Assembly (NCBI RefSeq): GCF_012720115.1
Contig: NZ_VNWN01000002.1
Span: 1,054,001-1,118,000, forward strand
Source of the DNA: Sneathiella chinensis
Lineage (GTDB): Bacteria > Pseudomonadota > Alphaproteobacteria > Sneathiellales > Sneathiellaceae
DNA length: 64,000 bases
Direction: 5' to 3'
This document shows positions 1 through 45,863 of the stretch, one piece after another. The notes below the pieces were generated by a model. The model did not search any database. It was not told where the DNA came from and was given only the letters and a program-made list of their open reading frames with translations. The translations under genes and the position numbers were made by a program. Numbering within the stretch: position 1 is the stretch's first letter; every line of letters starts with the position of its first letter.

Positions 1-1725
1 GCAGGGATGTGCTCGGCACTTCTGATGAGCGGCGCGCTGGCCCAGACAACCTCGAACGCTGCCACGGTCGATAATCCTTTTGCTTCGGACATGCCCGCCA
101 GCCAGAGCCATATGGTGCCGGTTATCCCGACGGACGGAGAGGTGAACGGCGGACAGTCGGATATTGTTCGCAATCCTGCCTTGCCCAACCCGGAGGAAAC
201 CACCACGCCTTACGGTCAGGTCTCGCCCGTTCTGGAAGAGGCTGAAATTTTCCCGTTTGGTCACCAGTTGTTCGCCAAATCAAATTTTGTCGATCAAAGC
301 CTGTCCGTGAATTCCGACTATGCCATTTCTCCGGGGGACCGGATCGTGGTCAAGATGTGGGGCGCGCGGGTGTATGAAAATGTCCTGTCCGTGGACGTAC
401 AGGGCAATATCTTCATTCCCGAGGTCGGTCCCATCTATGTGGAGGGATCCCGAAATTCCCAGCTGAATTCAATCGTCGGGAAAAGCGTGTCCCGCGTCTT
501 CACGGACAATGTGAAGGTCTATACAAACCTGCTGGGAACGCAGCCGATCGGTGTTTTTGTCACGGGCGCGGTAAAATACCCGGGCCGTTATCCGGGCGCG
601 AAGTCAGACAGTATTCTTTATTATCTGTCCCGGGCAGGCGGCGTTGACCCCGAGCAGGGCAGCTATCGGTCCATTCTGGTGCGGCGAAAAGGGGAAACCC
701 TTGCCTCGGTCGACCTGTATAACTTCCTCGTCAATGGTGACCTGGCGGATGTCCAGTTTGAAGACAAGGACACCATTGTAGTGGGCGCGCAGCTTCCAAC
801 GGTCAGTGTCTCCGGTGAGGTGAAGAACAGCTACAAGTTTGAAATCGATCCGCGGACCTATTCCGGGGCGGATGTGTTGCGGATTGCCAACCCGAAGGGA
901 ACCGCAAGCCACGTCCTGCTGAAAGGTGTGCGGGGGGACAAGGCGATCAGCCAGTTCATCACGATGGATCAGGCACAAAGGTCCCGCTTGGCAGCAGGCG
1001 ACCAGTTGTTTGTGGAAAGCGATCAGACCTCTGACGAGATTACCGTCAAGGTGAGCGGCAATACGGAAGGGGCCTCAACCTTGACCGTTTCAAGGTCCGC
1101 AACCCTTGGCCAGATTGCCAACCTGATCAAAACCGATCCGCTGACCCATGAGTTGGGAGCGATCTATATCCGCCGCCCGTCGGTCGCAGAGCGTCAGAAG
1201 CGGGCCATTGAAAAGTCACTTTATGAATTGCAGCGGTCGGTCCTGACCGGTTCTTCCTCCAGCACCAGTGCCTCCCAGATCCGTGTGCAGGAAGCGCAAC
1301 TGATTGATCGGTTTGTGCAGCAGGCGCGGGCGGTCGAGCCCGAAGGGCGTGTGGTCCTGTCCGGGGTTGATTGGTCCGGCACCCATGTTGAGGACGGGGA
1401 CGAGATTGTCATTCCGGAGAAAACGGATGTTGTCTTCATCAGTGGTGAAGTGAAGGTTCCGCAAACCATCTTGTGGCGGGAAGAGTATTCATCGGCTGAC
1501 TATATCGAGGCGTCAGGTGGCCTGAGCAACCGGGGCGATGACGACAGGCTTGTGATTGTCCGGCTGGACGGGTCGGTTCATGACGGCAGCAAGAAAATCA
1601 TGAAGGGCGACCAGATTCTGGTGCTGCCAAGGATTGATACCAAGCTGTTCGCCATGTTCAAGGATCTGGTGGAAATCACCTACCGGGTGGCCTTGTCGGC
1701 TGCTGTGGTCCTGCGGGCGGATTAA
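1..1725 (+). CDS. Polysaccharide export protein, KpsD/Wza family (5' end outside window)
   Basis: Outer-membrane/periplasmic export component for capsule-type polysaccharide. The frame is open to the left edge. The first visible Met (base 7) gives a hydrophobic stretch ending in GALAQ without a basic n-region, so the true start and the front of the signal peptide are probably upstream. A poly-export domain starts near residue 100 (ISPGDRIVVKMWG). SLBB-type domains follow near residues 185 (VTGAVKYPGRYPG) and 465 (ISGEVKVPQ). The length, about 570 residues, fits KpsD-type proteins of group 2 capsule systems better than the shorter Wza. A KpsS-like gene 13 kb away on the other strand supports a capsule role. 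Family assignment is confident; KpsD rather than Wza is inference. Confidence 0.85.
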   Translation, partial: AGMCSALLMSGALAQTTSNAATVDNPFASDMPASQSHMVPVIPTDGEVNGGQSDIVRNPALPNPEETTTPYGQVSPVLEEAEIFPFGHQLFAKSNFVDQSLSVNSDYAISPGDRIVVKMWGARVYENVLSVDVQGNIFIPEVGPIYVEGSRNSQLNSIVGKSVSRVFTDNVKVYTNLLGTQPIGVFVTGAVKYPGRYPGAKSDSILYYLSRAGGVDPEQGSYRSILVRRKGETLASVDLYNFLVNGDLADVQFEDKDTIVVGAQLPTVSVSGEVKNSYKFEIDPRTYSGADVLRIANPKGTASHVLLKGVRGDKAISQFITMDQAQRSRLAAGDQLFVESDQTSDEITVKVSGNTEGASTLTVSRSATLGQIANLIKTDPLTHELGAIYIRRPSVAERQKRAIEKSLYELQRSVLTGSSSSTSASQIRVQEAQLIDRFVQQARAVEPEGRVVLSGVDWSGTHVEDGDEIVIPEKTDVVFISGEVKVPQTILWREEYSSADYIEASGGLSNRGDDDRLVIVRLDGSVHDGSKKIMKGDQILVLPRIDTKLFAMFKDLVEITYRVALSAAVVLRAD

Positions 1726-1875: not shown

Positions 1876-2466
1876 GTGACCTTTGAAATCCGACTGGCAG
1901 TGCCAAGTGATGCCTCCTTTATTGCTGATCATCTTTGCCGTGCAGGCGGGGGGCTGATGGAGTTTTTGCTGGCTGATATCATTCCCGATGTGGTGCCGGA
2001 GCAGCTTTTGGCCATCAATGCCACCGAAGGGGATGAGGCCATGTCCTACAAGAACGCCCTTGTCGTGGATACGGAGAACGGCCCGAAGGGGCTTTTGCTG
2101 GCCTATTCCTTTGATGAGTTTAACATTTCCAAGCAGATGGAGATGTTCGTGGACCGGGAACGTCTGGACCATGTGAGGGAGCTTTACACCCACCGCCTTG
2201 AGAACAGCTATTATGTCCATGCCCTGTCCGTGGATGACAGCCTGCAGGGGCAGGGGGCCGGACGGGCGCTGTTGGACCTTGCCTATGAGATTGCGCAGGA
2301 TGAAGGGTTTGACTCTGTTTCCCTGCATGTGTGGCGAGACAATGAACGCGCCTTCGATCTGTATCAGAAGAACGGTTTCAAGCCGGTGACCGATATCCGC
2401 ATCGATCGTCATGATCGCCTGCCCCATGACGGTGGCATGATCCTGATGAAACATGAACTTGGCTGA
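1876..2466 (+). CDS. GNAT family N-acyltransferase
   Basis: A 196-residue GNAT protein that would transfer an acyl group, usually acetyl, from CoA to an amine. The acetyl-CoA loop is visible near residues 118-130 (LSVDDSLQGQGAGRALLDLA), followed by the usual C-terminal pattern NERAFDLYQKNGF. The GTG start is chosen because AGGAAAA lies seven bases upstream and the N-terminal beta strand (FEIRLAVPSDA) starts at once. The SDR gene follows after 11 bases, so the two are probably co-transcribed. Its acceptor is unknown. In this lipid/capsule setting, N-acylation of an amino-lipid or an amino sugar is possible, but nothing in the sequence shows it. Confidence 0.85.
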   Translation: MTFEIRLAVPSDASFIADHLCRAGGGLMEFLLADIIPDVVPEQLLAINATEGDEAMSYKNALVVDTENGPKGLLLAYSFDEFNISKQMEMFVDRERLDHVRELYTHRLENSYYVHALSVDDSLQGQGAGRALLDLAYEIAQDEGFDSVSLHVWRDNERAFDLYQKNGFKPVTDIRIDRHDRLPHDGGMILMKHELG

Positions 2467-2477
2467 TCTGATTTCCC

Positions 2478-3284
2478 ATGACTGAGAGTGTCGTTGCAAT
2501 TACGGGCGCCAGCAGCGGTATTGGAAAGGCGTTGGCCCTTCAGTATGCCAAGCCGGGCGCTGTTCTGGCGCTGGTTGCGCGAAATACTGCCAAACTGGAG
2601 ACCATCGCGGAGGCCTGCCGCAAGAAGGGCGCGACGGTAGAGACCGTTGCCGTGGATGTGCGGGACTACGGGGCGGTTGAGCAGTGGCTTCGGGCGGTCA
2701 ATGACCGGACGCCCCTTGATATTGTCTTTGCCAACGCAGGGGTGACAAACGGCGTTGCCGAAGGTGAGGCCACGGAAAAGATCGAGGATATTCAAACCCT
2801 TCTCGATATCAATCTGACCGGCGCCATCCATACCGTTTCGGCAGCCAGTGATATTTTCCGGAAAAACGGGGGCGGGCGGATTGCCGTGATCAGTTCGCTG
2901 GCGTCTTATGTGGGGTTCAAGGGGTCCCCGGCCTATTGTGCCAGCAAGGCGGGCCTTCGGATATATTGCCAAAGCATGCAGCGGGCGCTGCGCCCGTTCG
3001 GGATTGACCTGACCATCGTTTATCCGGGATATGTGAAAACCCCGATGAGTGACCGGATTGTGACAGCCAAGCCGTTTACCAAAACCGCAGAACAGGCGGC
3101 TGCGCTGATTGTCCGGGCGGTTGAGCAGAGACGCACCCAGATCGGTTTTCCGTGGCTGTTATGGACGGGGGTTCGGATCCTCGCCATGTTGCCGCTATGG
3201 GGGCAGAATATTTTTGTTCCCGCCTTTGACTATCAGGTGGCCGAGGATGCTGACAAGAACGCAGCGACACCATTGCCTGATTGA
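2478..3284 (+). CDS. Short-chain dehydrogenase/reductase, RkpH-like
   Basis: A classical SDR of 268 residues that would reduce a ketone with NAD(P)H. It shows the TGASSGIG cofactor motif near residue 9, NAG near residue 88 and the catalytic Ser (ISSLAS) and YCASK near residues 138 and 151. The C-terminal 50 residues are hydrophobic (FPWLLWTGVRILAMLPLWG), as in SDRs that act on membrane lipids. RkpH of the Sinorhizobium K-antigen region and 3-ketosphinganine reductases are SDRs of this general kind. Its place in a cluster with an alpha-oxoamine synthase makes a 3-keto-amine lipid a sensible substrate; that is inference. Confidence 0.85.
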   Translation: MTESVVAITGASSGIGKALALQYAKPGAVLALVARNTAKLETIAEACRKKGATVETVAVDVRDYGAVEQWLRAVNDRTPLDIVFANAGVTNGVAEGEATEKIEDIQTLLDINLTGAIHTVSAASDIFRKNGGGRIAVISSLASYVGFKGSPAYCASKAGLRIYCQSMQRALRPFGIDLTIVYPGYVKTPMSDRIVTAKPFTKTAEQAAALIVRAVEQRRTQIGFPWLLWTGVRILAMLPLWGQNIFVPAFDYQVAEDADKNAATPLPD

Positions 3285-3434: not shown

Positions 3435-5078
3435 ATGTGGCTGGTATTGGGATCCGCGATTAGTCTTTTGGCGATGATCTGGCTTCTGGATCTGGTTGTC
3501 TTGCCAAAGCGTACCCGTGGAAACCGGGGCGGCGTCTTTACCTTCTTTTCGGTTACCCCGCCGCTTGTCTATTACTCCAGCATCCTGATGCTGACCTACC
3601 GGCCCATCTTTTCCTTGCTGTTTTCCGTTGGCACCTATGCGGTCATTGTGGTTCTTAACAATGCCAAGGTGAAGGCGGTGAAAGAACCGCTTGTCTATAG
3701 TGACTTTCACCTGTTTAGAGAGGTTATCCGGCATCCGCATCTGTATGTGAAATATATTGATATGCGGAAACTGCTGGGGATCGTGGCGTTGGCCGTGCTG
3801 GCGGTTTATGCGTCCTTTCGGTATGAACCGCCGATCATTGAGCGGGCGGTCATGGCGGATTATCTGCCCGCAGGACTGTTTTTTACCATCTTGCTGGGGG
3901 CGATCTATGCCATCATCTATGGCCCCTTGCAGAAGCCTTTCCGGAAAATCCTGCTGGGGTTCGGGCCAACGGCGGATGTGACCCAGAACGTAACCCAGCT
4001 TGGGTTGGTAGTGTGCCTGATTTTCTATTTCTTCCTGTCCGGCATGGACAAGGTTCCGGCAAATCGGGCAGGGCGGTCAAAAACGAAACAGGCCGACGGG
4101 GCGAAAGCCGAAGACTTCCAGACAATTTTCCAGAACCCGGAACGGGCCAGAGGCGGGCGCCTTCCCGATATCATCGCGGTTCAGGCCGAGTCGTTCTTTG
4201 ACGTGCGGTATCTTCAATCCGGACTGGATGAAAATATCCTTGAGAATTATGACAGCATTGTCAGCACCGCGGCCTTCCATGGCCGACTGACGGTCCCGGC
4301 ATGGGGCGCCTATACCATGCGGACGGAGTTTGCCTTCCTGAGCGGCCTGCCGGAAGACGCGCTGGGGCACCACAAGTTCAATCCCTATCTTCAGCTTGGC
4401 AGCAAGCCCTTCTGGACCCTTGCCCATAACCTGAAGGCGCTTGGATATACCACGGTCTGTGTTCACCCGTTCCCGGCGACCTTCTTCAACCGGAAGAATG
4501 TGTTCCCCAATCTGGGCTTTGATCATTTCATCGATATGAACGAGTTCGATTCCGATGCCTTCTATGGACCCTATGTCAGCGATGTGGCGCTGGGGCAGCG
4601 GATCATTCAGGTGGTAGAGGATAGCGAGAAGCCGGTCTTTGTTTTCGCCATCACCATGGAGAACCACGGCGCCTGGCCGGTGGACCGCCTGAAAGCTGTG
4701 GATGGGGACAGCATGAAGGAGGAAAACTGGCCCCTTGGGTGTTTTTCCCTGAACCATTACATCGCCCATATGCGCAATAGTGACCAGATGATGAAGGAGG
4801 TGTCCGGCTATCTGAAAGAGCGGGACGAGCCGGCTGTTTTCTGTCTCTATGGGGATCATATGCCCAATCTTCAAAATGCGTTCTCTCAGGTGGGCTATGA
4901 TGATCCGCGGACGGATTATTTTATCTGGACAACCCGGGGCAAACGGTCCAAGCAATTGGATACCAGTGCCGATACTCTCAGCCGCCTGCTGTTGGATGTG
5001 GCGCTGAACGAGCGTTCTGACAATCTGCCAAAATCGCAGGAGACAGAACAGGTTGCCGCCACCTCACGCTCTGCGTAG
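3435..5078 (+). CDS. LtaS-like membrane phosphotransferase (alkaline phosphatase superfamily), RkpI-like
   Basis: A 547-residue membrane protein with about five N-terminal membrane segments (residues 1-205) and an extracytoplasmic sulfatase-type domain (about 243-520). Metal and nucleophile positions match the lipoteichoic acid synthase pattern: E252 (AVQAESFF), T294 (GAYTMRTEF), H411 (TMENHGAW) and D474-H475 (YGDHMPN). LtaS enzymes move glycerol phosphate from phosphatidylglycerol to an acceptor; related enzymes move other phospho-head groups. ATCCGGAGGG directly before the ATG is a good ribosome site. RkpI of rhizobial K-antigen clusters appears to belong to this type of protein. The acceptor here may be the cluster's own lipid or the capsule; unproven. 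Confidence 0.85.
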   Translation: MWLVLGSAISLLAMIWLLDLVVLPKRTRGNRGGVFTFFSVTPPLVYYSSILMLTYRPIFSLLFSVGTYAVIVVLNNAKVKAVKEPLVYSDFHLFREVIRHPHLYVKYIDMRKLLGIVALAVLAVYASFRYEPPIIERAVMADYLPAGLFFTILLGAIYAIIYGPLQKPFRKILLGFGPTADVTQNVTQLGLVVCLIFYFFLSGMDKVPANRAGRSKTKQADGAKAEDFQTIFQNPERARGGRLPDIIAVQAESFFDVRYLQSGLDENILENYDSIVSTAAFHGRLTVPAWGAYTMRTEFAFLSGLPEDALGHHKFNPYLQLGSKPFWTLAHNLKALGYTTVCVHPFPATFFNRKNVFPNLGFDHFIDMNEFDSDAFYGPYVSDVALGQRIIQVVEDSEKPVFVFAITMENHGAWPVDRLKAVDGDSMKEENWPLGCFSLNHYIAHMRNSDQMMKEVSGYLKERDEPAVFCLYGDHMPNLQNAFSQVGYDDPRTDYFIWTTRGKRSKQLDTSADTLSRLLLDVALNERSDNLPKSQETEQVAATSRSA

Positions 5079-5118
5079 GCGGGGCTGCGTTTCGATTACC
5101 TGTGGTGGGGCGGGATTG

Positions 5119-6014: not shown

Positions 6015-7364
6015 CTAGCTTTTTAGCTTATCCCAGCATTCCTTGGTTTTCTGGACCGCTTCGCGAATTTGATCCGGCGTATGTTCGCTGGACAGGAAGA
6101 AGCGAAGACGGGCGCTTTCCTCCGGGACAGCCGGATAGATGATCGGCGGGGCATAGACCCCGGCATCAAACAGGCGGGAAGAAAGCTGTCCGGCCTTGAC
6201 TGAATTGCCGATAATGATGGGAACAACCGCGTGCCCCTGACTGACGCCGGTATTGAGGCCGGCCTCTTTGGCAAGGCGGATGAAAAGGTTTGCATTGTCC
6301 CGGAAGCGCTTGATCCGCTCGGGCTCGCGCAGCATGACATTCAGGCTGGCAAGAGCGGCTGCGGCCACTGGCGGGGGCATCCCTACGCTGTAGACAAAGC
6401 CCGGAGCAGAGAATTTCAGATATTCGATCAGGGCGTTTGACCCGGCAATATAGCCGCCGCAACCGGCGCTTGTCTTGCTGAGGGTGCCCATCCAGATATC
6501 CACGTCCCGACCGGTGACCCCGAAATGTTCGCCGCTTCCGCGCCCTGTGGCACCAAGGACGCCGAGCCCGTGGGCCTCGTCCACCATCAGAAGGCATTTG
6601 TGGCGTTTCTTGATCTCTACCAGCTTGTCGAGCGGGGCGGCGTCCCCGTCCATGCTGTAAACCCCTTCAACCACGATCAGGCAGCGTTCATACTGGTGCC
6701 GGATGTCTTTCAGGATCTGGTCCAGCATGTTCATGTCGTTATGGGGGAACATGCGCCGCTTGGCCGAGGAAAGCTGCGTGCCCTGCAGGATGCTGTTGTG
6801 CGAGAAATTGTCGTACAGGATCAGGTCCTTGGACCCAAGCAGGTTGCCGATCACGGTCAGGTTGGTGGCATAGCCACTGACCATGACCACGGCGTCATCC
6901 ACGTCATAGACTTCGGCCAGCTTCCGTTCCAGTTCAAGATGGATTTTACGCTCACCGGCGACGATGCGGCTGGCCGATACGGAGGTACCATATTCATCAA
7001 TGGCGTCATGGGCCGCCTGACTGACTTCCGGGTGACCGTTCAGGCCGAGATAGTTGTAGTTGGCGAAATTGATCAGGGAATGATTGCCGATGGTAACCGT
7101 GCTGTTGGCAATGCCTTCCTGCAGGCGAAAGAATGGATTTTCAATCTTCGCCTTTTCCGCAATCACCTTGTGCAGATGAAGTTTCTGATACTCGGGAAAT
7201 TCCTCGAACTTGTAATAGGTCGAGGGAATAACCGCATTCACAACATCCTGACCGTCATCGGATTTGACTGTTTTCTTTCTGGCCCGCAAGTTGGCAAGAA
7301 GGCTTTTCTTGTCTTCTTTCGACAGGCCAAAGGGTGCAGTCTTTTTTTCACTCATACGTGTCAT
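6015..7364 (-). CDS. Alpha-oxoamine synthase family PLP enzyme (AONS/serine palmitoyltransferase-like), RkpG-like
   Basis: A 449-residue PLP enzyme that would join an acyl thioester to an amino acid with loss of CO2, giving an alpha-amino ketone. Seen: H189 in DNFSHNS, D262 and H265 in VDEAHGLG, and the Schiff-base lysine K297 in GTLSKTSAGCGG. It has about 60-80 extra N-terminal residues compared with BioF. The start lies 6 bases after the polyketide synthase stop; Met4 at 7355 is an alternative with GGGAAA upstream. Biotin synthesis is unlikely because no bio genes are near. Tight coupling to a synthase that ends in a carrier domain suggests it takes acyl chains directly from that carrier. 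RkpG of K-antigen clusters is the nearest named type. Confidence 0.9.
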   Translation of the reverse strand: MTRMSEKKTAPFGLSKEDKKSLLANLRARKKTVKSDDGQDVVNAVIPSTYYKFEEFPEYQKLHLHKVIAEKAKIENPFFRLQEGIANSTVTIGNHSLINFANYNYLGLNGHPEVSQAAHDAIDEYGTSVSASRIVAGERKIHLELERKLAEVYDVDDAVVMVSGYATNLTVIGNLLGSKDLILYDNFSHNSILQGTQLSSAKRRMFPHNDMNMLDQILKDIRHQYERCLIVVEGVYSMDGDAAPLDKLVEIKKRHKCLLMVDEAHGLGVLGATGRGSGEHFGVTGRDVDIWMGTLSKTSAGCGGYIAGSNALIEYLKFSAPGFVYSVGMPPPVAAAALASLNVMLREPERIKRFRDNANLFIRLAKEAGLNTGVSQGHAVVPIIIGNSVKAGQLSSRLFDAGVYAPPIIYPAVPEESARLRFFLSSEHTPDQIREAVQKTKECWDKLKS

Positions 7365-7370
7365 TTCCCA

Positions 7371-10300
7371 TCAGGAAGAAGGTTGTGTGTCGGAGCGACC
7401 AACGCCAGATACTTCTTCCATAACATCCTTCAAAACGTCAGCTTCCCCGGACAGGCCGTGTTGCGCCATTACACTTTCAAGGTTGTGGTCAGAAGTCAAG
7501 GCGGCCTCTTCTTCCTCGCCAAGGATGAGCTTGGCAATATTCTCGGAGAGGTCGGTAATGTTACCGCCGCCAAGAACGCTCATGGAGGACAGTTCCACAC
7601 CCAGCTTGCGTTCCAGTTCCATGGTCAGTTCCAGTGTCATCAGGCTGTCAATCCCCAGATCGAACAGGGACTGCTGCGGCGCGATCTTTTCGGCTGCAGT
7701 TCCGGTAATTGCGGAAATCTGGTTGACGATCACGGACTGGATCATGGCGCGGGCCTCATCCGCAGGCAGGGACATCAGTTCCGCCAGCAGGTCGTCGGCA
7801 TCGCCGCCGCCAGCGTCTTCACTGGACAGGTGGCGGATATCGTCATAGCGGGCGGATTGACCGCTTGGGAAGCCGTTGGTGATGCTGCCCCAGTTCAGTT
7901 GCAGGACAGCCGCGTTGGTCTGTGCGTTGTCGAGGGCGAGGCCAAGGCCGGAAAGGGCGGTGTCCGCATTCATGGCTTTCAGGCCTGTCCGCTTGACCAG
8001 AATATCCTTTACGTCCTCGTTGGCGGCCAGAACACCCACATCATTGATCGCCCCCCATGCGAGGGCGGTTGCCGGCAGGCCAAGGCGCTGGCGGTAGGCT
8101 GCAAGGGCCTCAAGGTAGCTGTTCCCCGCAACATAACTTGCCTGACCGGGGTTGCCGATATAGGTGGTGGCCGATGAATAGAGGGCGAACATTTCCAGCG
8201 GATCGTTTGCCGTCAGTTCATGCAGGTTCCACGCCCCGGTGATCTTCGGGGACAACACGTTCTGAAGGCGGTCTGCCTCCACATTCATGATCAACCCGTC
8301 GTCAAGAACCATGGCACAGTGTAGGACGCCGGTGATCCGGGTACCGTCTGCGCGAAGGGCGTCCAGTGCCGCTTGCAGGGCCGCCCGGTCGGTCACGTCC
8401 GCCTTGATAATTTCCACCCTGACGCCGCGGGCGATCATGCCGTCAATAACGGCCTGATCCTGTTCGGTCTTGACGCCGCTTCGGCCCATCAGGGCAAAGT
8501 GGGAGAACCGATCTCGTGACAGCCAATCGGCAGAGGCAAGGCCAAACCCGCCAAGGCCGCCGGTCACCACACAACAGCCGTCTGACAGGCGAGGCTGTTC
8601 CTGAGGCTTGGGCGCGGCGGTAATGCGCCGGTTTGCCTTGTCGGCCATCGAGACCACAATCTTGCCGATATGGCGGCTTTGCTGCATGGTCCGGAAGGCT
8701 TCCTCGATCTGGGAAGGCCGGAACACATAATGGACCAGCGGCTTGAAGACACCCTGTTCGAACAGGACCATCATGTCCTTGAACAGGCGGGCGGACAGGG
8801 CTGGCTTTTCAATCAGCAACTGGTCGGCATCGATGCCGTAATAGGTGATATTGTTGCGGAACGGACGCAGGCCGATCTTGCTGTCGGCATAGAAGTCCCG
8901 CTTGCCCAGTTCCAGAAAACGCCCGAACGGCCGAAGAATGGCCAGGTTCTTGGTGATGGCCTGACCGGACAGGGAGTTGAGAACAACGTCAACGCCTTCC
9001 CCGTTTGTCAGTTCCATGACCCGGTCGGCATATTCAAGGGACCGGGAATCCAGAATGTTTTCACAGCCCAGCAGTTTCAGGAAGTTCCGTTTTTCATCGG
9101 ACCCTGCGGTCACATAGATTTCAGCCCCGATATGCTGGCAATATTGCAGGGCTGCAAGCCCGACACCGCCCGCGGCACCGTGGATCAGAACCCGCTCGCC
9201 GGGTTGCAGCCGTGCCAGATAATCCAGGGCATAATAGATGGTGAAAAACACACTGGGGATGGTGGCCGCTTCTTCAAAGCTGATCTCATCCGGTATTTTC
9301 GCGACGGCCGTTGTCTTGGTGACGATGGTGTCGGAGAAACAGTCAGAGGCAAAGCACATGACCCGGTCGCCGGGCTGGAAGTCGGTGACATCCTGTCCGA
9401 CAGAGGTGATAACACCGGCCCCTTCCATGCCAAGCGTCGGCCCGGCATAGCCATTTTCAACGGCTTCGTCTTTCAGGATCCCCATGGCCCACATCACATC
9501 GCGGAAGTTCAGGCCGGTCGCCTGCATGTCGATACAAATCTCATCCGCCTTCGGGGTCGGACGGGGGCGTTTGAACCAGCCCAGATTTTCAAGGGCACCG
9601 GGCGCCTTGAAGGACAGGCCCACATTGTCATGGCCCTCTGTCTCGCCGGTTGTCAGGTCAAGCGGGCGAATACGGGTCGAAAGACGCACACCGTTTCGGT
9701 AGACCACTTCCTTGTCCGTGCCTGTCTCGGTCATTTCACGGGCAATCAGGGAACCCAGCCCATCGGTGTCGGCCGGGCCCTCAAGGGCAGGCAGGTCAAC
9801 CAGTCGGGTCTGAAGGTCGGGATATTCGTTGGCGACAACCCGTCCCAGCCCCCAGAGGGGGGCCTGTGCCGGTGTGACCGGGGCCTGCAGGTCCGGTGAC
9901 GGCTGGCTTCCGGCGGTGACAATGGTCAGGCGGGGTTTTTGCGGCAGGATGGTTTGTTCAAAGCCGCGAAGCAGCGAAACCAGAGCCGTGCAGCGATCGT
10001 CCTGAGCCTCAAGGGCAGCCGCTTCGGAAGTGGCAGCCAGACCCGCAAGATGCACCATATGGGTGACCTTGAGGCCCTTTTCCAGAAGCGTCTTGCCAAG
10101 GGCGGCAAAGCCGGCCGGCGTGGCAATGTCCACCACATGGTGGTTGCCCTCTGCCGAGGCCTGTTCAGGACCGGTTTGGACAAAAATAACCTGCGGGGCG
10201 TTGAAATGACGCTGGACCGCTTCGGCAATGGCCAGATCGGTGTCCTGATCATCCTGCAAGATCAGCAGGCATTCGTTGGAGGGCGCATCCGGGGATGCCT

Positions 10301-13300
10301 CGGTTTGCTCCGGATCGGTGTCCAGCAGGGCGGGAAGGCTGGTTTTTGTTCCCAGCAGCACAAGGCCGTTTTCAAGGCGACTTTCCTGTTCGGACAACAG
10401 GAAGTGAGGCACCAGATGGCCCTGTTGTTCCAGATTGCCGGCCCATGCCTTTTCAGACAGCGGAAGCGGTGACGGCTTGTCATCTGACGGGCTGCGATCC
10501 CACCATGCCGGGTTGCCCCCGGCGATCAGGTTGGCAATCCGCCCGCGGCTGTTCTGGGCCAGAACCAGCATGCCGCCCTTGCGCAAGATGCGTTTTGACA
10601 AGGCGGTTAGAATTTCAAACGCCGGCGGCGACCACGGGGTGCTGCGGCAGACCAGAATGTCAAAGCATCCATTGGCAGTGGCAAGGGCCTCGATCTCTTC
10701 AATGACGGTGTCGGTGATCCGCACACAGTCAACACCATGGACCGGTGCAAGATCCGTGTTGGCCCGTTGCAGGATATCCGCATCAGAGGCCGTGTAGGTG
10801 TAGGTGAAACGGTCTTCCGGCAGGGCGTTTACAAGCGCATGGGTTGCCAGAACATTGGGGCCGTCCAGTTCCAGAATACGAAGGCGGCCAGACCCCTCAT
10901 GGCGCTGAACCAGATCCAGAACGGCGGCATTGACGGTTTCATCCATTTCCTGCGTCAGGACAGAGCCTTCCACGGTATATTTGGGAATGGCTGTCCCGGA
11001 CAGATAGGGCAGGCTGGCGCTGTCCTTGCGGCCAGACAGGATATCCGCAAGAGCATCGCCCGTGCGGCCAGCCAGAACCAGTTCCGGCAGAAGTTCCGAA
11101 TGATCCGCTGTCAGCAGGCGCCAGATCTGCGCGGGTTCGTAAAACGCGGCGTCTTCCGCCTGCTTCCAGAGCCCGTCCGCCTGAACAAGCAACCCATCCT
11201 CTTCCATCAGGCCAAGAAGATAGGTCAGGAACCGGGTCTGGTCCTCGCTGACAGCGCCGCTGGCAACCAGACCTTCGACGCTAAAACCGGCTTCCATATT
11301 GGCGCCGAGGGTCACAAGGGCCTCGCTGGTGAAGGCGGTTACAAGGGCATCCACAATCGGGACGACTTCTTCCTTGAACAGTGCCTTGTCGTCTGCAAGG
11401 CCTTCGTTGGCTGCATGCACACGGGCGGCAACCTCATCGGCCGGGGGCAGGGCGACGGTGTCGCCAAACGGATCGGCCGGGACTAGGGCCTGCTGATAGA
11501 AGGTTGGCGTTTTCGCCCGGGAGGCGCTGTCAAAACGACGGAAGCGGCAATCCTCCAGCATGGCGACAATCGACCCATCCGGTCCGGTCAGTTGGAAATC
11601 GGCAATGATGGACCGGGCGCTGATCCGGGAAATGCGGGCGTGGCAGGTAATTTCGCGCACGCCGCCCTGATACACGGCGACCTTTCCGAAGACGGACGGC
11701 AGGAAGACCACATCCTGCGGAATGTCGCTGTGGTCCTGCAGCAGGACAAACAGGCTTTGCAGGCAACTGTCCGTCAGGGTTGGGTGCAGAAGATAGTCGT
11801 CGGGTCCGAATTCCACGAATTCCGGAATGACAATGTGCGAGACGACAGTCTCTCCATCGCATGAAATATCGCGGATGCCCTGGAAGGCTGGCCCATAATC
11901 CAGGCCAAGGCCGCGAACAAAGGCATAGAGTTCACTTGCGGAGAACGAGGTTTTGGCTTCTCCGGCAGTGGTCTGGCCCCATGCCTTCGGGGTTGCCTCT
12001 ACAAGGGGGGCACCGCCAAGGTTGCCCGTCACATTGGTCATGCCTTGAGAGTCGCTCAGGTAGGGGCGGGTGGTGATGTCAAACCGGCCATCCTCTCCGC
12101 TCACCCGGGTGCGGACGGAACGAAGGGTTTTCTCTTCAAGGACAAGCGGGACATGAATTTCAAGATTTTCCACAACCTGCGCATCGCCGCCATGAAGTCC
12201 GCGAGAGGCGGACAGGGCGATTTCAAGGAAGCCCGCAGCCGGGAAGACAATGGTGTTTGTCACCTGATGGTCGATCAGGTAGCCGGGCTGCCGGGCGCCC
12301 AAGTCCCGTTTCCATTCGGGGGCGCCGCTGATTGACCGTTCACCCAGAAGCGGTCCTCCCCAGCTCCCTTTCAGGGTGAAGTTGGCTTCGGAGGTCGGCT
12401 CAAGAAAATAGGTTTGCTTGTCCCACACATAACGGGGAAGGGTGTCCGGCTTCGCGCCCTTTGGCAGCAGGGCCGTGAAATCCATTTTGCCGCCGTTCAC
12501 ATATACATGCGTTGGCAGTTCCGCAACGCGGCGGGCGTCGTCCTTTCCGGTCAGGCTGCCCAGCACGCTGAACTGGCCGGCTTCCTGTTTCAAGGTATTC
12601 CGGACATAGCCTGTCAGGATGCTTTTGGGGCCGATTTCAATGAACAGACGGCAGCCCTTTTCCCATGCGGCCTCAATGGCATGACGGAATTTTACCGGCT
12701 GGCGAATGTTGTGCCACCAATATTCCGCATCCAGCGTCTGGCCATCGGTTTCCTCGCCGCTGACTGTGGACAGGAAGGGGATTTTGGCTTCCGCCGGGGT
12801 AAGGCCGGACAGGCTTTGGCGAATTTCAGCCTCGATCGGGTCCATGTGCGGACTGTGGAAGGGGTATTCCAGATCCAGCTTCTTATAGAGGATCGAGCGT
12901 TGCTTGCAGTAGGATTTGAGGGAAATCAGGTCCTCGTCATCCCCGGACAGGGTCATGCTGGTCGGGCCGTTGATCCCGGCGATGACCACATCCAGATTGA
13001 GTTCCTGAATGAGCGCTTCCGCACTTTCCTGATCCATTTCCAGTGCGGCCATGCCGCCCTTGCCGCGGGTCTTTGCCTGCGCGGCGCTTCGGGCCAGAAT
13101 GACATCGACGGCCTGCTCAAGGGTGAGGGCGCCGCTTGCATAGGCCGCAGCGATTTCACCAACACTGTGGCCAAAGACGGCATCCGGCTTGATCCCCATG
13201 CTGGCAAGATATTCAACGATGGCAATCTGCACGGTCATGATCAGCGGCTGGGCGATCATGGTATCGGCAATCTCGTCCTCGGTGGCGTTTTGGATCTTGT

Positions 13301-15086
13301 CGATGACGGACCAGCCTGATTTCTGCTGGACAAGGGCATCAATCCGGCCAATGACCTCTGCAAAAACGGGGGCTGCAGTCAGAAGCTCGCGGGCCATACC
13401 GACAAACTGCGTGCCGTTGCCTGAGAAAATATAGGCAATGGGCTTGTTCAATTCGTGGGTTTGGCCGCTGATGGCGGTTTCATAGGGGGAATCCTCATCG
13501 GCATAATTCACAAGCGCGTCGTGAATTTCCTGAACATCCTGTCCAAGCACGCCAATGCGCTCCTCGAACTGCTCCCGGTAGTGAAGCGCGGACGAGGCAA
13601 GTTCCAGATAGGCCGCTGTGTCCATGTTGGCGGCGGCCAGTTGCTCGGCATACTCAAGAGCAGAGGCCTTCAGGGAGAAATCCGAGCGGGCGCTGAGCAG
13701 CAGCGGCGGCAAGTGACCGGAAACGTCCTGCCCCGTCACCGGGGCCGGCTTCGTGGCGGCGGTGCCGGTATCTGCTGTTTGCAGGATGGCGTGGCCGTTT
13801 GCCCCGCCGAAACCGAAGGAGTTGACGCCGACGGTGACCGGGCTGCCATTCTGGCCGATGGTGGCCCCTTCGGTCGCAATCTTGAGGCCATATTCGGCAA
13901 AGGGGATGTCGCTGCGGGGTTCCTTGACATGCAGGGTGGGCGGGACCATCCGGTTTTTGACCACCAGCGCCGCCTTGATCAGGCCAATCATGCCGGAGCC
14001 AGCCTCAAGGTGGCCCGCATTCGTCTTGGCAGAGCCAATCAGAAGCGGCTTTTCCGGATTGGCCTGTTCGCCGAAGAAACGACCGATTGCGCCGACTTCT
14101 GCCGCATCACCGACCACGGTCCCGGTGCCGTGGGCTTCGATATAATCGACCTCGCCGGGTTCCACATGGGCGGACTTGTAGACAGAGCGCAGCAACTGTT
14201 CCTGATGTTCGGAGCTTGGCAGGGAAATGCCGTTGGTCCGACCGTCAGAGTTGGTGCCGGCACCGGCCACCACCGCCATGATGGTGTCGCCGTCTTCAAG
14301 GGCCTTGTCCAACCGTTTCAGGATCAGGATGCCGCCACCTTCCGAGCGCACATAGCCGTTCCCGCGGCTGTCAAAGGCCATGCAGCGCCCGTCGGGGGAC
14401 AGCATGTTGGCCTGAGAAAAACCGACGAAGGGTTGCGGTGTCAGAAGGATACTGACGCCGCCGCAAATGGCCATGTCAGACTGGCCCGACCGGATTTTCT
14501 GGCATGCCAGATCAAGGGCATAGAGCGAGGACGAGCAGGCCGTATCGACCGACATGCTGGAGCCATGAATGTCATAGAAATAGGACAACCGGTTCGAGGC
14601 AATGCTCATGGTTGTGCCGAGCATGAAGAAGGAGTTGCCGGTCGCCGTGTCGCCAAATTTGGAGGAGCCGAATTCCGTCGAGGAAATGCCCACATAGACG
14701 CTTGTATTGCTGCCCCGGATCGAGGACGGCTTGATGCCCGCATCCTCAAAGGCTTCCCAGCTCAGTTCCAGCAGCAGGCGTTGCTGCGGGTCCATTTGCG
14801 CCGCTTCCCGCGGGGAAATGTTGAAGAAACCGGCGTCGAAGTCCCAGATATTGTCAATCTGGCCGGCTGATTTCGTATAGGCCTTTCCGGGAATGTCTTT
14901 CTCGGGGTAGTGATAGGCGTCCGTATTCCAGCGTTCGTCACTGACTTCGGTGATCAGATCCCGACCTTCCAGAAGAATGTTCCAGAAATCCGCAGCGCTG
15001 TGGCAACCACCCGGCAGCCGGACAGAGGTCCCGACAATGGCAATGCGATCTTTCGGCAAAGAATTTTTGTTTTCGAAATCAGTCAT
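7371..15086 (-). CDS. Type I reducing polyketide/fatty acid synthase (KS-AT-DH-psiMT-psiKR-ER-KR-ACP), RkpA-like
   Basis: A 2571-residue single-module synthase. KS (about 12-440): C184 in DTACSSS, H319 in EAHGTGT, H359 in NAGHLEAG. AT (550-850): S641 in GHSVGE and PFHS at 742-745. DH (910-1185): H940 and D1106, but the usual Gly four residues after the His is N944. Residues 1380-1530 look like a decayed methyltransferase (LELDGPN where a Gly-rich SAM loop is expected). A structural pseudo-KR (1600-1770) precedes ER (1825-2145, HGAAGGVG). KR (2165-2410) has TGGLGGFG and Y2318. ACP carries S2481 (GIDSLM), then about 50 acidic residues and no thioesterase. A full reductive loop predicts a saturated chain, probably built iteratively. 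Release is most likely by the adjacent oxoamine synthase. Closest named type: RkpA. Confidence 0.93.
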   Translation of the reverse strand: MTDFENKNSLPKDRIAIVGTSVRLPGGCHSAADFWNILLEGRDLITEVSDERWNTDAYHYPEKDIPGKAYTKSAGQIDNIWDFDAGFFNISPREAAQMDPQQRLLLELSWEAFEDAGIKPSSIRGSNTSVYVGISSTEFGSSKFGDTATGNSFFMLGTTMSIASNRLSYFYDIHGSSMSVDTACSSSLYALDLACQKIRSGQSDMAICGGVSILLTPQPFVGFSQANMLSPDGRCMAFDSRGNGYVRSEGGGILILKRLDKALEDGDTIMAVVAGAGTNSDGRTNGISLPSSEHQEQLLRSVYKSAHVEPGEVDYIEAHGTGTVVGDAAEVGAIGRFFGEQANPEKPLLIGSAKTNAGHLEAGSGMIGLIKAALVVKNRMVPPTLHVKEPRSDIPFAEYGLKIATEGATIGQNGSPVTVGVNSFGFGGANGHAILQTADTGTAATKPAPVTGQDVSGHLPPLLLSARSDFSLKASALEYAEQLAAANMDTAAYLELASSALHYREQFEERIGVLGQDVQEIHDALVNYADEDSPYETAISGQTHELNKPIAYIFSGNGTQFVGMARELLTAAPVFAEVIGRIDALVQQKSGWSVIDKIQNATEDEIADTMIAQPLIMTVQIAIVEYLASMGIKPDAVFGHSVGEIAAAYASGALTLEQAVDVILARSAAQAKTRGKGGMAALEMDQESAEALIQELNLDVVIAGINGPTSMTLSGDDEDLISLKSYCKQRSILYKKLDLEYPFHSPHMDPIEAEIRQSLSGLTPAEAKIPFLSTVSGEETDGQTLDAEYWWHNIRQPVKFRHAIEAAWEKGCRLFIEIGPKSILTGYVRNTLKQEAGQFSVLGSLTGKDDARRVAELPTHVYVNGGKMDFTALLPKGAKPDTLPRYVWDKQTYFLEPTSEANFTLKGSWGGPLLGERSISGAPEWKRDLGARQPGYLIDHQVTNTIVFPAAGFLEIALSASRGLHGGDAQVVENLEIHVPLVLEEKTLRSVRTRVSGEDGRFDITTRPYLSDSQGMTNVTGNLGGAPLVEATPKAWGQTTAGEAKTSFSASELYAFVRGLGLDYGPAFQGIRDISCDGETVVSHIVIPEFVEFGPDDYLLHPTLTDSCLQSLFVLLQDHSDIPQDVVFLPSVFGKVAVYQGGVREITCHARISRISARSIIADFQLTGPDGSIVAMLEDCRFRRFDSASRAKTPTFYQQALVPADPFGDTVALPPADEVAARVHAANEGLADDKALFKEEVVPIVDALVTAFTSEALVTLGANMEAGFSVEGLVASGAVSEDQTRFLTYLLGLMEEDGLLVQADGLWKQAEDAAFYEPAQIWRLLTADHSELLPELVLAGRTGDALADILSGRKDSASLPYLSGTAIPKYTVEGSVLTQEMDETVNAAVLDLVQRHEGSGRLRILELDGPNVLATHALVNALPEDRFTYTYTASDADILQRANTDLAPVHGVDCVRITDTVIEEIEALATANGCFDILVCRSTPWSPPAFEILTALSKRILRKGGMLVLAQNSRGRIANLIAGGNPAWWDRSPSDDKPSPLPLSEKAWAGNLEQQGHLVPHFLLSEQESRLENGLVLLGTKTSLPALLDTDPEQTEASPDAPSNECLLILQDDQDTDLAIAEAVQRHFNAPQVIFVQTGPEQASAEGNHHVVDIATPAGFAALGKTLLEKGLKVTHMVHLAGLAATSEAAALEAQDDRCTALVSLLRGFEQTILPQKPRLTIVTAGSQPSPDLQAPVTPAQAPLWGLGRVVANEYPDLQTRLVDLPALEGPADTDGLGSLIAREMTETGTDKEVVYRNGVRLSTRIRPLDLTTGETEGHDNVGLSFKAPGALENLGWFKRPRPTPKADEICIDMQATGLNFRDVMWAMGILKDEAVENGYAGPTLGMEGAGVITSVGQDVTDFQPGDRVMCFASDCFSDTIVTKTTAVAKIPDEISFEEAATIPSVFFTIYYALDYLARLQPGERVLIHGAAGGVGLAALQYCQHIGAEIYVTAGSDEKRNFLKLLGCENILDSRSLEYADRVMELTNGEGVDVVLNSLSGQAITKNLAILRPFGRFLELGKRDFYADSKIGLRPFRNNITYYGIDADQLLIEKPALSARLFKDMMVLFEQGVFKPLVHYVFRPSQIEEAFRTMQQSRHIGKIVVSMADKANRRITAAPKPQEQPRLSDGCCVVTGGLGGFGLASADWLSRDRFSHFALMGRSGVKTEQDQAVIDGMIARGVRVEIIKADVTDRAALQAALDALRADGTRITGVLHCAMVLDDGLIMNVEADRLQNVLSPKITGAWNLHELTANDPLEMFALYSSATTYIGNPGQASYVAGNSYLEALAAYRQRLGLPATALAWGAINDVGVLAANEDVKDILVKRTGLKAMNADTALSGLGLALDNAQTNAAVLQLNWGSITNGFPSGQSARYDDIRHLSSEDAGGGDADDLLAELMSLPADEARAMIQSVIVNQISAITGTAAEKIAPQQSLFDLGIDSLMTLELTMELERKLGVELSSMSVLGGGNITDLSENIAKLILGEEEEAALTSDHNLESVMAQHGLSGEADVLKDVMEEVSGVGRSDTQPSS

Positions 15087-15093
15087 TTAACTA

Positions 15094-16335
15094 TCATAAA
15101 CCTGTTGGTTGCGTCAGCCGGGGCAGGGAATGGGTTACGGCCAGTTCCATGCCGGTTCGCGTATAGAAATTGCCATTGGCGTGACAGTAGCCAAGGAGAG
15201 ACGTTCTGAGAGCGTCCAGCAAAGAGAGATCGGGGCTTTTCGGGTCGGTCCAGAACTCTGTCTGGCCGGACCGGTAGACAAGCCCCGGTATGTTATAGAT
15301 TGCATCTCCGAGCAGCAGAACCGGGACCTTTTTGTCCAACGCGGTCATGCCCACGGTGCTGTTGATGGTGATGACCCCCCGGCAATGGGCAAGCAGGGCA
15401 TTCAGGTCCCCGCCATCAATGAAGCGGACGCGATCCTTGATGGCCTGTTCGGCAGCAAAGGCCCGTATCAGTTTGCCATAGTTGATCATGCCGTTGTCGA
15501 GAGGGTGGTTCTTGATGATCAGAACCGCATCCTTGGGCGCCTCGCTCGCAAAGGTTTTTAACACAGTGCGAATGGCGTCCGGCATGGTGCCGTAGGGGGA
15601 ATGGACCCGCACCTGAGAATCTGAATCAAGCTGCAAGGGGAACAGGTAGCAGGGCGCTGCCATGTCCGCGATCTCGCGAACGGCTTTTTCGGCCCTTGGC
15701 TTCAGCCAGGACAGGGTCACAAGGCGCTTTGTCCAGGTCGCATATTCCGCCCAGACCGTATAGGGGCGATGGGTCCGGTGGTGCGGGAATTTCCAGATCA
15801 TCAGCAGGTTCATGAAATTGTAGACAAAATCATAGAAAATGCGTTGCCACAACCCGCCGCCAACGGGTTCCGGGGCCTCTAAAACGGCCTTGTCCGCCAG
15901 CGCGTGAATGATGTCGGCCTGCTTTGGGAACGAGGAATGACCGTTGACGCCGCCCTGTTCCAGCGTGATCCAGTGAGGACGGATATAGCCTTCCTCAAAC
16001 ACCCAGATGGAAATGCCTTTTGATTTGGCAAGGCTGATCGCCTTCTGGTGCCATGGGCGACAGTCGCCGAACAGGACGATATCCGTAACCTGCTTCTGGT
16101 CCAGCGTTTGTTCAAGAAAGCCTTGAAACTGCGCGGGCTTGTCCGTGAAATTTATTTCATGGAAGCCGTTCCAGAAGAAGTGATCGCCACCGTTGAAATT
16201 GATTTTGGATACAGCACACCCATTGTCTGCAAGTCGTTGTCCAAGACGCAGGAAAAAGGGACTGGCAATGGTTTGCAGAAAGAGAAAGGATCTCCTGCAG
16301 TGTTGCCTGTCGGTATTGGGGTCTTCCCTAACCAA
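15094..16335 (-). CDS. kpsS: Capsule export/Kdo transferase protein, KpsS-like
   Basis: A 413-residue protein of the KpsS/KpsC (capsule polysaccharide) family. In group 2 capsules KpsS adds the first Kdo of the linker to a phosphatidylglycerol-derived lipid at the cytoplasmic face. Family hallmarks are FLFLQTIASPFFLRLGQRL near residue 17, INFNGGDHFFW near 45, WVFEEGYIRPHWITLEQGGVN near 110, KNHPLD and INSTVGMTAL. The gene ends 7 bases before the synthase start, so it shares a transcript with the lipid genes. The start is TTG; no good ATG precedes the conserved N-terminus, so the exact start is uncertain. It could equally be the RkpJ-type protein of K-antigen clusters. Confidence 0.85.
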   Translation of the reverse strand: MVREDPNTDRQHCRRSFLFLQTIASPFFLRLGQRLADNGCAVSKINFNGGDHFFWNGFHEINFTDKPAQFQGFLEQTLDQKQVTDIVLFGDCRPWHQKAISLAKSKGISIWVFEEGYIRPHWITLEQGGVNGHSSFPKQADIIHALADKAVLEAPEPVGGGLWQRIFYDFVYNFMNLLMIWKFPHHRTHRPYTVWAEYATWTKRLVTLSWLKPRAEKAVREIADMAAPCYLFPLQLDSDSQVRVHSPYGTMPDAIRTVLKTFASEAPKDAVLIIKNHPLDNGMINYGKLIRAFAAEQAIKDRVRFIDGGDLNALLAHCRGVITINSTVGMTALDKKVPVLLLGDAIYNIPGLVYRSGQTEFWTDPKSPDLSLLDALRTSLLGYCHANGNFYTRTGMELAVTHSLPRLTQPTGL

Positions 16336-20725: not shown

Positions 20726-20795
20726 CTTTATAAAAGTATGATATTAAAGGCCGTTTTGTTGCTGAACGTCAGATTTCTGGTTGGGAGACAGAAAC

Positions 20796-21398: not shown

Positions 21399-21424
21399 GT
21401 TTTGGATCGGGAGAGTTACAGCCA

Positions 21425-45464: not shown

Positions 45465-45534
45465 CACACCCAAAATACTCCAGCTTTTTCTTTGGTTTCC
45501 TGCTGTTTTTCAGGGCCGCAGGGGGCCTAAATCA

Positions 45535-45828: not shown

Positions 45829-45834
45829 CCTCTT

Positions 45835-45863
45835 AATATAGTTGCAGATGTTCAAGATTGAAA
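45835..45863 (-). promoter_or_regulatory. Probable promoter of the tmRNA gene
   Basis: On the minus strand TTTCAA (45863-45858) and TATATT (45840-45835) are 17 bases apart and end about seven bases before the expected 5' end of the acceptor piece. The match to a housekeeping sigma promoter is fair. Confidence 0.6.

What the first reader, a model, noticed from the sequence alone, without database searches (positions are those of the whole stretch)
6015..15086. Thioesterase-free synthase probably unloaded by a PLP enzyme
The synthase ends in an ACP plus an acidic tail of about 50 residues, and the next gene is an oxoamine synthase with about 60-80 extra N-terminal residues. These two extensions could dock, so the chain would leave by decarboxylative C-C bond formation rather than hydrolysis.
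Basis: inference. Interest (0 to 1): 0.7.

Follow-up and report, generated by a model that had tools for sequence, protein, structure and literature searches.

The report
Sphingolipid-making enzyme pair in capsule cluster
A bacterial fatty-chain factory with no release domain sits next to a vitamin-B6 enzyme that most likely takes the chain off by joining it to serine, giving a sphingolipid building block that I infer anchors the cell's sugar capsule; such an enzyme pair was shown to make sphingolipids in another bacterium in 2025.

Summary
Window 7371-15086 (-) is a thioesterase-free KS-AT-DH-psiMT-ER-KR-ACP synthase ending in a 50-residue tail of net charge -10. Six bases on, 6015-7364 (-) is an alpha-oxoamine synthase (AOS) with about 41-51 (not 60-80) extra N-terminal residues. 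The pair recurs across Pseudomonadota and matches RkpA-RkpG of rhizobia. Release by decarboxylative C-C bond formation is already supported experimentally for the homologous SgaAB of Pseudomonas (PMC12134224: serine, C24-C28 sphinganines, phosphoglycerol sphingolipids), so the headline idea is right but not new. Two points go beyond the papers I could search. (1) Both extensions carry conserved motifs: a histidine in 73 of 73 acidic tails and a basic K..LI...L helix in the AOS, suggesting a docking pair; contact was not shown (AlphaFold inconclusive). (2) The pair sits in a kps-type capsule locus with KpsS, an SDR and a GacH/LtaS-like phosphoglycerol transferase. I infer that the product becomes phosphoglycerol-sphinganine, a lyso-PG mimic, and that this is the unnamed rkp-1 capsule lipid.

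The parts
7371..15086 (-). Iterative fully reducing type I PKS/FAS, RkpA/WcbR/SgaA-like; no thioesterase
13926..15050 (-). KS domain (residues 13-387)
   Evidence: catalytic C/H/H motifs
12549..13433 (-). AT domain (552-846), GHSVGE / YPFH
11520..12353 (-). DH domain (912-1189)
10227..11378 (-). Pseudo-methyltransferase region (about 1237-1620), no SAM motif
   Evidence: weak PF18558 match below cut-off; motif absent
8652..9548 (-). ER domain (1847-2145)
8043..8576 (-). KR domain (2171-2348)
7542..7733 (-). ACP domain (2452-2515)
7374..7523 (-). Acidic C-terminal tail, 50 residues, net charge -10; two predicted helices of moderate confidence
7458..7460 (-). Codon of the tail histidine (residue 2543) found in 73 of 73 aligned tails
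6015..7364 (-). PLP-dependent alpha-oxoamine synthase, RkpG/SgaB-like, probable serine C-acyltransferase
7227..7364 (-). N-terminal extension of the AOS (about residues 1-46)
7272..7325 (-). Basic amphipathic helix motif LSKEDKKSLLANLRARKK (residues 14-31), proposed docking element
15094..16335 (-). KpsS/RkpJ-like beta-Kdo transferase, 7 nt upstream of the PKS in the same run of genes
3435..5078 (+). Membrane sulfatase-superfamily enzyme, GacH/LtaS-like phosphoglycerol transferase; RkpI counterpart
2478..3284 (+). SDR reductase, RkpH counterpart and probably like SgaC, proposed 3-ketosphinganine reductase
1876..2466 (+). GNAT acetyltransferase next to the SDR; also beside it in L026, L028, L032, L033 and L049; role unknown
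7..1725 (+). Polysaccharide export (KpsD-like) outer-membrane protein

Best explanation
The synthase builds a saturated acyl chain on its own ACP and has no domain to hydrolyse it. The AOS next door, held to it by the tail/N-extension pair, loads L-serine on PLP, attacks the acyl-ACP thioester and loses CO2, so that the chain leaves as a 3-ketosphinganine. The SDR reduces this to a long-chain sphinganine. The GacH/LtaS-like membrane enzyme adds phosphoglycerol from phosphatidylglycerol, giving a single-chain phosphoglycerol lipid that resembles lyso-PG. KpsS puts the first Kdo on it, and the capsule is built on this anchor and exported by KpsMTED. Shown in a homologue: PKS and AOS both needed, serine condensation, sphinganines, and masses fitting phosphoglycerol-sphinganines. 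Inferred here: direct acyl-ACP hand-off, docking by the two extensions, the enzyme that adds phosphoglycerol, and use as capsule anchor.
For: PKS-AOS pairing: synthase C-terminus within 200 nt upstream of the AOS in 73 of 83 AOS loci; PKS domains in 70 of 80 loci of the genome scan. SgaAB of P. fluorescens MYb115 in PMC12134224: deletion of either gene abolishes C24-C28 sphinganines; purified SgaB condenses acyl-CoA with L-serine almost exclusively; further compounds most likely phosphoglycerol sphingolipids; an SDR, SgaC, proposed as reductase. The published sgaA primer end falls on the PKS stop codon, with 1-4 mismatches in 23, in 8 of 9 Pseudomonas loci held here (7 mismatches and 9 nt off in the ninth; no exact match in 133 loci), which supports their being SgaAB orthologues. 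ACP and AOS are one chain in 6 relatives. Capsule: KpsS lies 7 nt upstream of the PKS; KpsM-, KpsT- and KpsE-like genes and glycosyltransferases lie just left of the window. An S. meliloti locus has the same set: PKS, AOS 54%, SDR 33%, sulfatase-superfamily gene 30%, KpsS 37%. SDR and phosphoglycerol-transferase-like gene are adjacent on one strand in 21 of 21 scan loci showing both; KpsS is within 206 nt of the SDR in 16 of 19. In 289 Alphaproteobacteria, 5 of 6 genomes with the transferase-like gene have the AOS (Fisher p 2.9e-7; 1.2e-4 without the own genus), and 7 of 12 AOS genomes have KpsS (p 2.5e-7; 2.9e-5). Closest solved relative of the transferase-like protein: GacH, E 3e-18.
Against: No experiment in this organism. 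18 of 54 loci with at least 7.5 kb downstream of the AOS show none of SDR, transferase-like gene, KpsS or KpsD (4 of them are the planctomycete fusions), and 5 of 12 AOS-positive alphaproteobacterial genomes lack a KpsS match. In the window itself KpsS is about 12 kb from the SDR, on the other strand. Peters et al. treat the lipids as secondary metabolites, and induced sphinganine did not raise the phosphoglycerol lipids. SgaB accepts acyl-CoA in vitro. AlphaFold gives no confident tail/N-extension arrangement: pLDDT 57-77 for the tail helices, 65-89 for the N-helix, pTM 0.51 in the short construct. Absence of the motifs in the fused proteins is one change on the tree, not several, and a split AOS (L095) and three of 39 left-out rows also fall at or under 3 bits. 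Phosphoglycerol-transferase, KpsE and KpsS assignments rest on homology; none reaches its NCBIfam cut-off. Fisher tests are not corrected for relatedness.
Confidence: 0.6

Rival explanations
1. The PKS-AOS pair makes free sphinganines as secondary metabolites or membrane lipids; the capsule genes are neighbours without biochemical link.
For: Peters et al. see sphinganines and phosphoglycerol sphingolipids and describe secondary metabolites; the word stem capsul is not in the main text. 18 of 54 loci lack nearby SDR, transferase-like, KpsS and KpsD matches.
Against: KpsS lies 7 nt from the PKS in the window; KpsS, SDR and transferase-like gene recur together beside the pair in distant groups; rkp-1 genes are described as needed for a lipid carrier of K polysaccharide (passages).
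Confidence: 0.25
2. The AOS uses acyl-CoA: the chain is released some other way (hydrolysis or transfer to CoA) and reactivated; the extensions serve something else, for example membrane or Kps-complex binding.
For: PfSgaB is active with acyl-CoAs; wcbT is annotated in the field as acyl-CoA transferase (recalled); an alpha/beta hydrolase lies at 17783-18679 on the same strand.
Against: No thioesterase or ligase in the conserved pair; six relatives carry an ACP right before the AOS in the same chain; solved relatives include a cysteate acyl-ACP transferase (7u7h) and BioF crosslinked to ACP (8dle); conserved opposite-charge motifs.
Confidence: 0.15
3. The amino acid is not serine in this organism (alanine or glycine), giving a 1-deoxy lipid that cannot take phosphoglycerol at C1.
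For: Window AOS is only about 54% identical to the Pseudomonas enzymes; Fum8 of fungi uses alanine (passage); KBL, which uses glycine (recalled), ties with SPT as closest fold.
Against: PfSgaB strongly prefers serine; SPT is among the closest folds and sequences; a phosphoglycerol-transferase-like gene recurs in the cluster and would need the serine hydroxyl.
Confidence: 0.1

Closest known systems
SgaAB(C) of Pseudomonas fluorescens MYb115 (Peters et al. 2025, PMC12134224; sections 7, 8 and 15 read, other passages seen)
   Same: PKS followed by AOS, an SDR nearby; Pseudomonas loci held here match the published sgaA primer at the PKS stop.
   Different: That paper's main text does not mention capsule, rkp or wcb, acyl-ACP, docking or sulfatase. 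The window AOS is about 54% identical to the Pseudomonas loci; the MYb115 sequences themselves were not held.
rkp-1 region of Sinorhizobium meliloti (rkpA, rkpGHIJ; Petrovics 1993 and Kiss 1997 known here only through passages of later papers)
   Same: PKS, BioF-like AOS, SDR, sulfatase-superfamily membrane protein and KpsS-like protein at one locus (L112); described as making a lipid carrier for K polysaccharide.
   Different: In the window SDR and transferase-like gene are on the other strand and KpsS is upstream of the PKS; the lipid's nature is not given in the passages seen. The L112 record carries no rkp names; I assign them by content and order.
wcbR/wcbT capsule genes of Burkholderia (passage in PMC3908369)
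   Same: PKS of the WcbR/RkpA group in a capsule cluster.
   Different: Not compared residue by residue here.
Fum1 PKS and Fum8 AOS of fumonisin producers (passage in PMC7711896)
   Same: PKS chain condensed with an amino acid by an AOS; an SDR reduces the ketone (Fum13).
   Different: Fungal, alanine, mycotoxin product; lack of a thioesterase is recalled, not tested here.
Serine palmitoyltransferase of Sphingobacterium multivorum (3a2b)
   Same: Fold (Z 50.1, rmsd 1.9 A over 392 residues; tied with KBL 7bxp and 1fc4) and PLP-site residues.
   Different: Lacks the N-extension; not linked to a PKS (recalled).
GacH and LtaS phosphoglycerol transferases
   Same: Sequence match (GacH E 3e-18); motifs YTMRTEF, FFNR, TMENH, YGDH present (their roles in LtaS are recalled).
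   Different: Those act on cell-wall polymers of Gram-positives (recalled); the acceptor proposed here is a sphinganine.

Membership tests
RkpA-RkpG / SgaA-SgaB pair | Fully reducing KS-AT-DH-(MT)-ER-KR-ACP protein without thioesterase | tested here: met
RkpA-RkpG / SgaA-SgaB pair | AOS gene directly after it on the same strand | tested here: met
   6 nt apart; 73 of 83 AOS loci have it within 200 nt
RkpA-RkpG / SgaA-SgaB pair | Product is a long-chain sphinganine made from serine | not testable with these tools
   shown for MYb115 (PMC12134224)
rkp-1-type lipid cluster | PKS, AOS, SDR, RkpI-type membrane protein and KpsS at one locus | tested here: met
   window against S. meliloti L112: all five match
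rkp-1-type lipid cluster | Required for capsule export | not testable with these tools
   literature passages for rhizobia only
Alpha-oxoamine synthase | Fold type I with PLP lysine and conserved His/Asp/His/Arg | tested here: met
Serine palmitoyltransferase (as a curated NCBIfam equivalog) | Score above a curated SPT cut-off | tested here: not met
   333 bits against cut-off 640 (NF047600); the best-scoring model is bioF, 360 against 426; it may work like an SPT but is no member of those curated subfamilies
Phosphoglycerol transferase (LtaS/GacH) | Sulfatase-superfamily domain with the Thr nucleophile motif after membrane helices | tested here: met
   (five hydrophobic segments)
Phosphoglycerol transferase (LtaS/GacH) | Transfers phosphoglycerol | not testable with these tools
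   inference from homology; LtaS NCBIfam model 39.5 bits against cut-off 970
ABC-transporter-dependent (kps) capsule locus | KpsM-, KpsT-, KpsE-, KpsD- and KpsS-type genes | tested here: met
   Pfam and NCBIfam matches; KpsE and KpsS below their NCBIfam cut-offs; KpsC was not looked for specifically
PKS docking-domain pair | Direct contact between C-terminal and N-terminal elements | tested here: inconclusive
   conserved charged motifs; models without confident arrangement

The most novel reading that the evidence does not exclude
A large class of Gram-negative capsules (rhizobial K antigens, wcb-type capsules of Burkholderia and Bordetella, those of many Pseudomonas and environmental Proteobacteria) is anchored on phosphoglycerol-sphinganine, made by a PKS unloaded by a serine-using AOS through a new type of docking pair: an acidic tail with an invariant histidine after the ACP, and a basic K..LI...L helix before the AOS. 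RkpI-type proteins are the missing phosphoglycerol transferases, and KpsS accepts this lyso-PG mimic.
Probability: 0.45. Interest if true: 0.85.

Novelty: new member of a known kind. Interest (0 to 1): 0.6.

Why it matters
rkp-1 is described in the passages I saw as making an undefined lipid carrier for a surface polysaccharide, while the 2025 sphingolipid paper has a lipid whose role in the producing cell is open. Putting the two together names the lipid, gives the core genes of the cluster a step each, offers an enzyme for the unassigned phosphoglycerol step, and yields tests that can be done in laboratory strains of S. meliloti or P. fluorescens. The tail/N-extension motifs, if they dock, would be a compact way of sending a fatty chain to a C-C bond-forming release enzyme, useful to enzyme engineers.

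Tried and rejected
Rejected: a chance pairing (73 of 83 loci). Rejected: a housekeeping AOS; the genome has a separate AOS homologue at C14 (38% identity), and of 12 genomes of the genus (some incomplete) 9 have only a match of that strength and 3 have one better than 1e-140. Considered: a stand-alone thioesterase; a hydrolase lies at 17783-18679, beyond KpsS in a run with a 2-hydroxyacid dehydrogenase and an acyl-CoA dehydrogenase; I did not test whether it is conserved with the pair. Ten of the 83 AOS loci were not in the pair counts: L033 and L059 (contig end or no PKS held), L052 and L071 (more than 500 nt between), L073 (no PKS match), L095 (AOS before PKS), L091, L097, L101 and L110 (fused). 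L045 was dropped from the tail statistics because its ACP was misplaced, leaving 72 pairs.

Led nowhere or weak: the first mixed alignment A1 misaligned the ACP rows and was replaced by A2 and A3. The tail HMM does not find even the S. meliloti RkpA tail above 3 bits, so its silence on fused proteins is weak evidence. The N-extension HMM finds 36 of 39 left-out rows above 3 bits and none of 15 other AOS homologues, of which three (L010, L015, L022) are cut at an internal Met; it scores the S. meliloti RkpG only 5.2 bits and misses L095, a split AOS. Fused and split AOS are separated by one branch (SH-aLRT 98), so motif absence counts once. Structure look-ups with both models matched mainly the AOS core and the ACP; tail and N-extension were barely tested. 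Kiss 1997 is not held, so rkp-1 statements come from passages of later papers. Literature searches on lipid anchors and rkp/wcb genes gave no paper joining sphingolipids to rkp or wcb genes, within an open-licence library and, where more papers matched, from listings of the top rows only. KpsC was not looked for, and AT substrate and chain length were not predicted. One search's Fisher test was rerun as with the own genus counted out explicitly; the values are the same.

Full report
What is there. The window is contig C12, bases 1054001-1118000, of an unnamed 3.5-Mb genome; the nearest named relatives found are Sneathiella and Sneathiellales MAGs (AOS 79-80% identical). On the minus strand three genes are packed with 6-7 bases between them: a KpsS-like gene (15094-16335), a 2571-residue synthase (7371-15086) and an alpha-oxoamine synthase, AOS (6015-7364). 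On the plus strand, running towards them, are a KpsD-like export protein, a GNAT, an SDR and a membrane-bound sulfatase-superfamily protein. Just left of the window lie KpsM-like (fused to TPR repeats), KpsT-like and KpsE-like genes and glycosyltransferases. It looks like an ABC-transporter capsule locus; several of these matches are below NCBIfam cut-offs, and KpsC was not looked for.

The synthase has no thioesterase match. Its KS, AT, DH, ER, KR and ACP motifs are intact and its methyltransferase-like region has no SAM motif, so it should make a saturated chain. The AOS has the PLP lysine and the usual His/Asp/His/Arg. In a structure look-up its model is matched best by serine palmitoyltransferase 3a2b (Z 50.1, rmsd 1.9 A, 392 aligned), tied with KBL enzymes (Z 50.1 and 49.8), and the list includes a cysteate acyl-ACP transferase (7u7h) and BioF crosslinked to ACP (8dle). 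It reaches no NCBIfam cut-off (bioF 360 of 426 bits; SPT models 333 of 640, 295 of 500, 235 of 670).

How general is it? With the window and two same-genus genomes that gives 83 AOS loci; in 73 the synthase C-terminus lies within 200 nt upstream. Most are Pseudomonadota; single loci are titled Campylobacterota, Thermodesulfobacteriota or Acidobacteriota, several of them MAGs. In an even draw of 289 genomes of the class, 12 have the AOS at E 1e-110 or better, the own genome and one of its genus included. An S. meliloti record has the same set: PKS (34-40% in two pieces), AOS 54%, SDR 33%, sulfatase-superfamily protein 30%, KpsS 37%; by content and order this is rkp-1, though the record carries no rkp names. 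[quoted passage not shown]

What is already known. Peters et al. 2025 (PMC12134224; sections 7, 8 and 15 read whole, other passages seen) show that the SgaA PKS and SgaB AOS of P. fluorescens MYb115 are both needed for C24-C28 sphinganines, that SgaB condenses acyl-CoAs with L-serine and hardly with alanine or glycine, and that further lipids are most likely phosphoglycerol sphingolipids; an SDR (SgaC) is proposed as reductase. The end of their sgaA primer translates to PNRLIE-stop and sits on the PKS stop codon, with 1-4 mismatches, in 8 of 9 Pseudomonas loci held here; the sgaB primer end fits worse (4-7 mismatches; best site on the AOS stop in 7 of 9). Acyl-ACP, carrier protein, docking, thioesterase, sulfatase, capsul, rkp and wcb do not occur in that paper's main text, and no paper in the library holds sphingolipid together with rkpA, rkpG, wcbR or wcbT (9 papers with two of the five words, none with sphingolipid).

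The two extensions. The 50-residue tail is acidic (-10) and the first 42 residues of the AOS basic (+5) in the window; over 72 pairs the tail is negative in 71 and the extension positive in 71. The tail holds a histidine in 73 of 73 sequences and, by eye, in 12 of 12 further synthases with a tail, 10 of them new, among them that of S. meliloti. The extension holds K (69 of 73), L (67 and 68 of 73), I or L (69 of 73) and L (66 of 73) in a short helix. Among 39 representatives the top tail column is 1.00 against at most 0.67 in 40 shuffles; the top five extension columns average 0.89 against at most 0.49. An HMM of the extension finds none of 15 other AOS homologues (three of them cut short) and none of six proteins in which an ACP precedes the AOS in one chain: a cyanobacterial KS-AT-DH-ER-KR-ACP-AOS, a Streptomyces KS-AT-ACP-AOS, three planctomycete ligase-ACP-AOS proteins and one ACP-AOS. 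That is what a docking pair would do, but it also misses one split AOS (L095) and three of 39 left-out rows, the fused and split forms are parted by one branch, the tail HMM is insensitive, and alphaproteobacterial extensions are less conserved. AlphaFold on in-frame read-through chains gave helices for the tail and the extension (pLDDT 57-77 and 65-89), a poorly ordered linker, and pTM 0.51 for the short construct; no contact data are returned. Docking is therefore likely but not shown. The fused proteins are the better evidence: the same reaction partners exist as one polypeptide, in the cyanobacterial case a whole thioesterase-free PKS (no thioesterase among its 18 Pfam families).

What the product is for. 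The SDR and the sulfatase-superfamily gene are neighbours on one strand in 21 of 21 scan loci showing both, and KpsS lies within 206 nt of the SDR in 16 of 19; in the window the first two are adjacent but KpsS is at the far end, next to the PKS. Of 54 loci with at least 7.5 kb downstream, 23 have the SDR, 23 the sulfatase-superfamily gene, 30 KpsS; 36 have at least one of these or KpsD and 18 none. Of 9 Pseudomonas loci, 7 show the sulfatase-superfamily gene and 6 the SDR and KpsS. In the 289 genomes, 5 of 6 with the sulfatase-superfamily gene have the AOS and 7 of 12 with the AOS have KpsS (Fisher 2.9e-7 and 2.5e-7; 1.2e-4 and 2.9e-5 without the own genus; relatedness not corrected). The closest solved relative of the sulfatase-superfamily protein is the phosphoglycerol transferase GacH (E 3e-18), then a lipoteichoic acid synthase. 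In E. coli, KpsS adds the first Kdo to (lyso-)phosphatidylglycerol (passage, PMC7694667). Phosphoglycerol-sphinganine is a one-chain phosphoglycerol lipid much like lyso-PG. The simplest reading that uses the core genes is: PKS, AOS, SDR, phosphoglycerol transferase, KpsS, capsule. This is inference; it would explain the phosphoglycerol lipids of MYb115 and the unnamed rkp-1 lipid at once.

Verdict. Observation confirmed, with a shorter N-extension than stated. Interpretation partly supported: release chemistry yes (and known), docking plausible, product role missed. Known kind for the enzyme pair; the docking motifs and the capsule-anchor link are what would be new.

Noticed in passing
window 20781-21398 and 21371-22030 (+): Two overlapping tandem 2OG-Fe(II) oxygenase genes (PF13640) of similar sequence by eye, perhaps a duplication.
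   Followed up: partly
window 5053-5952 (+): 299-aa ORF overlapping the end of the phosphoglycerol-transferase-like gene, no Pfam match, resembles phytanoyl-CoA dioxygenase-type proteins by eye; role in the cluster unknown.
   Followed up: no
L030 2014-4101 (+), just left of the window: KpsM-like ABC-2 permease with a long N-terminal TPR region in one ORF.
   Followed up: no
L091, L097, L101, L110 (Planctomycetota); L113 (Planktothrix plasmid); L115 (Streptomyces plasmid): AOS relatives fused behind a ligase-ACP, an ACP alone, a whole reducing PKS, or a KS-AT-ACP protein; products not looked up.
   Followed up: partly
window 15094-16335 (-): The ORF finder takes the KpsS ORF from a TTG start; the true start may lie downstream.
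   Followed up: no
window 7340-7371 (-): The AOS may start at its second ATG (residue 4), which has a purine-rich stretch upstream; both starts are close to the synthase stop, so translation may be coupled (by eye).
   Followed up: no
window 45495-45840 (-): tmRNA gene call marked with an asterisk by ARAGORN (tag ANDNNEAFAVAA).
   Followed up: no
G000-G011 (genus Sneathiella): Patchy distribution: of 12 genomes of the genus, some incomplete, 3 have an AOS match at 1e-140 or better, one of them only about 50% identical, which may mean horizontal exchange of capsule loci.
   Followed up: no
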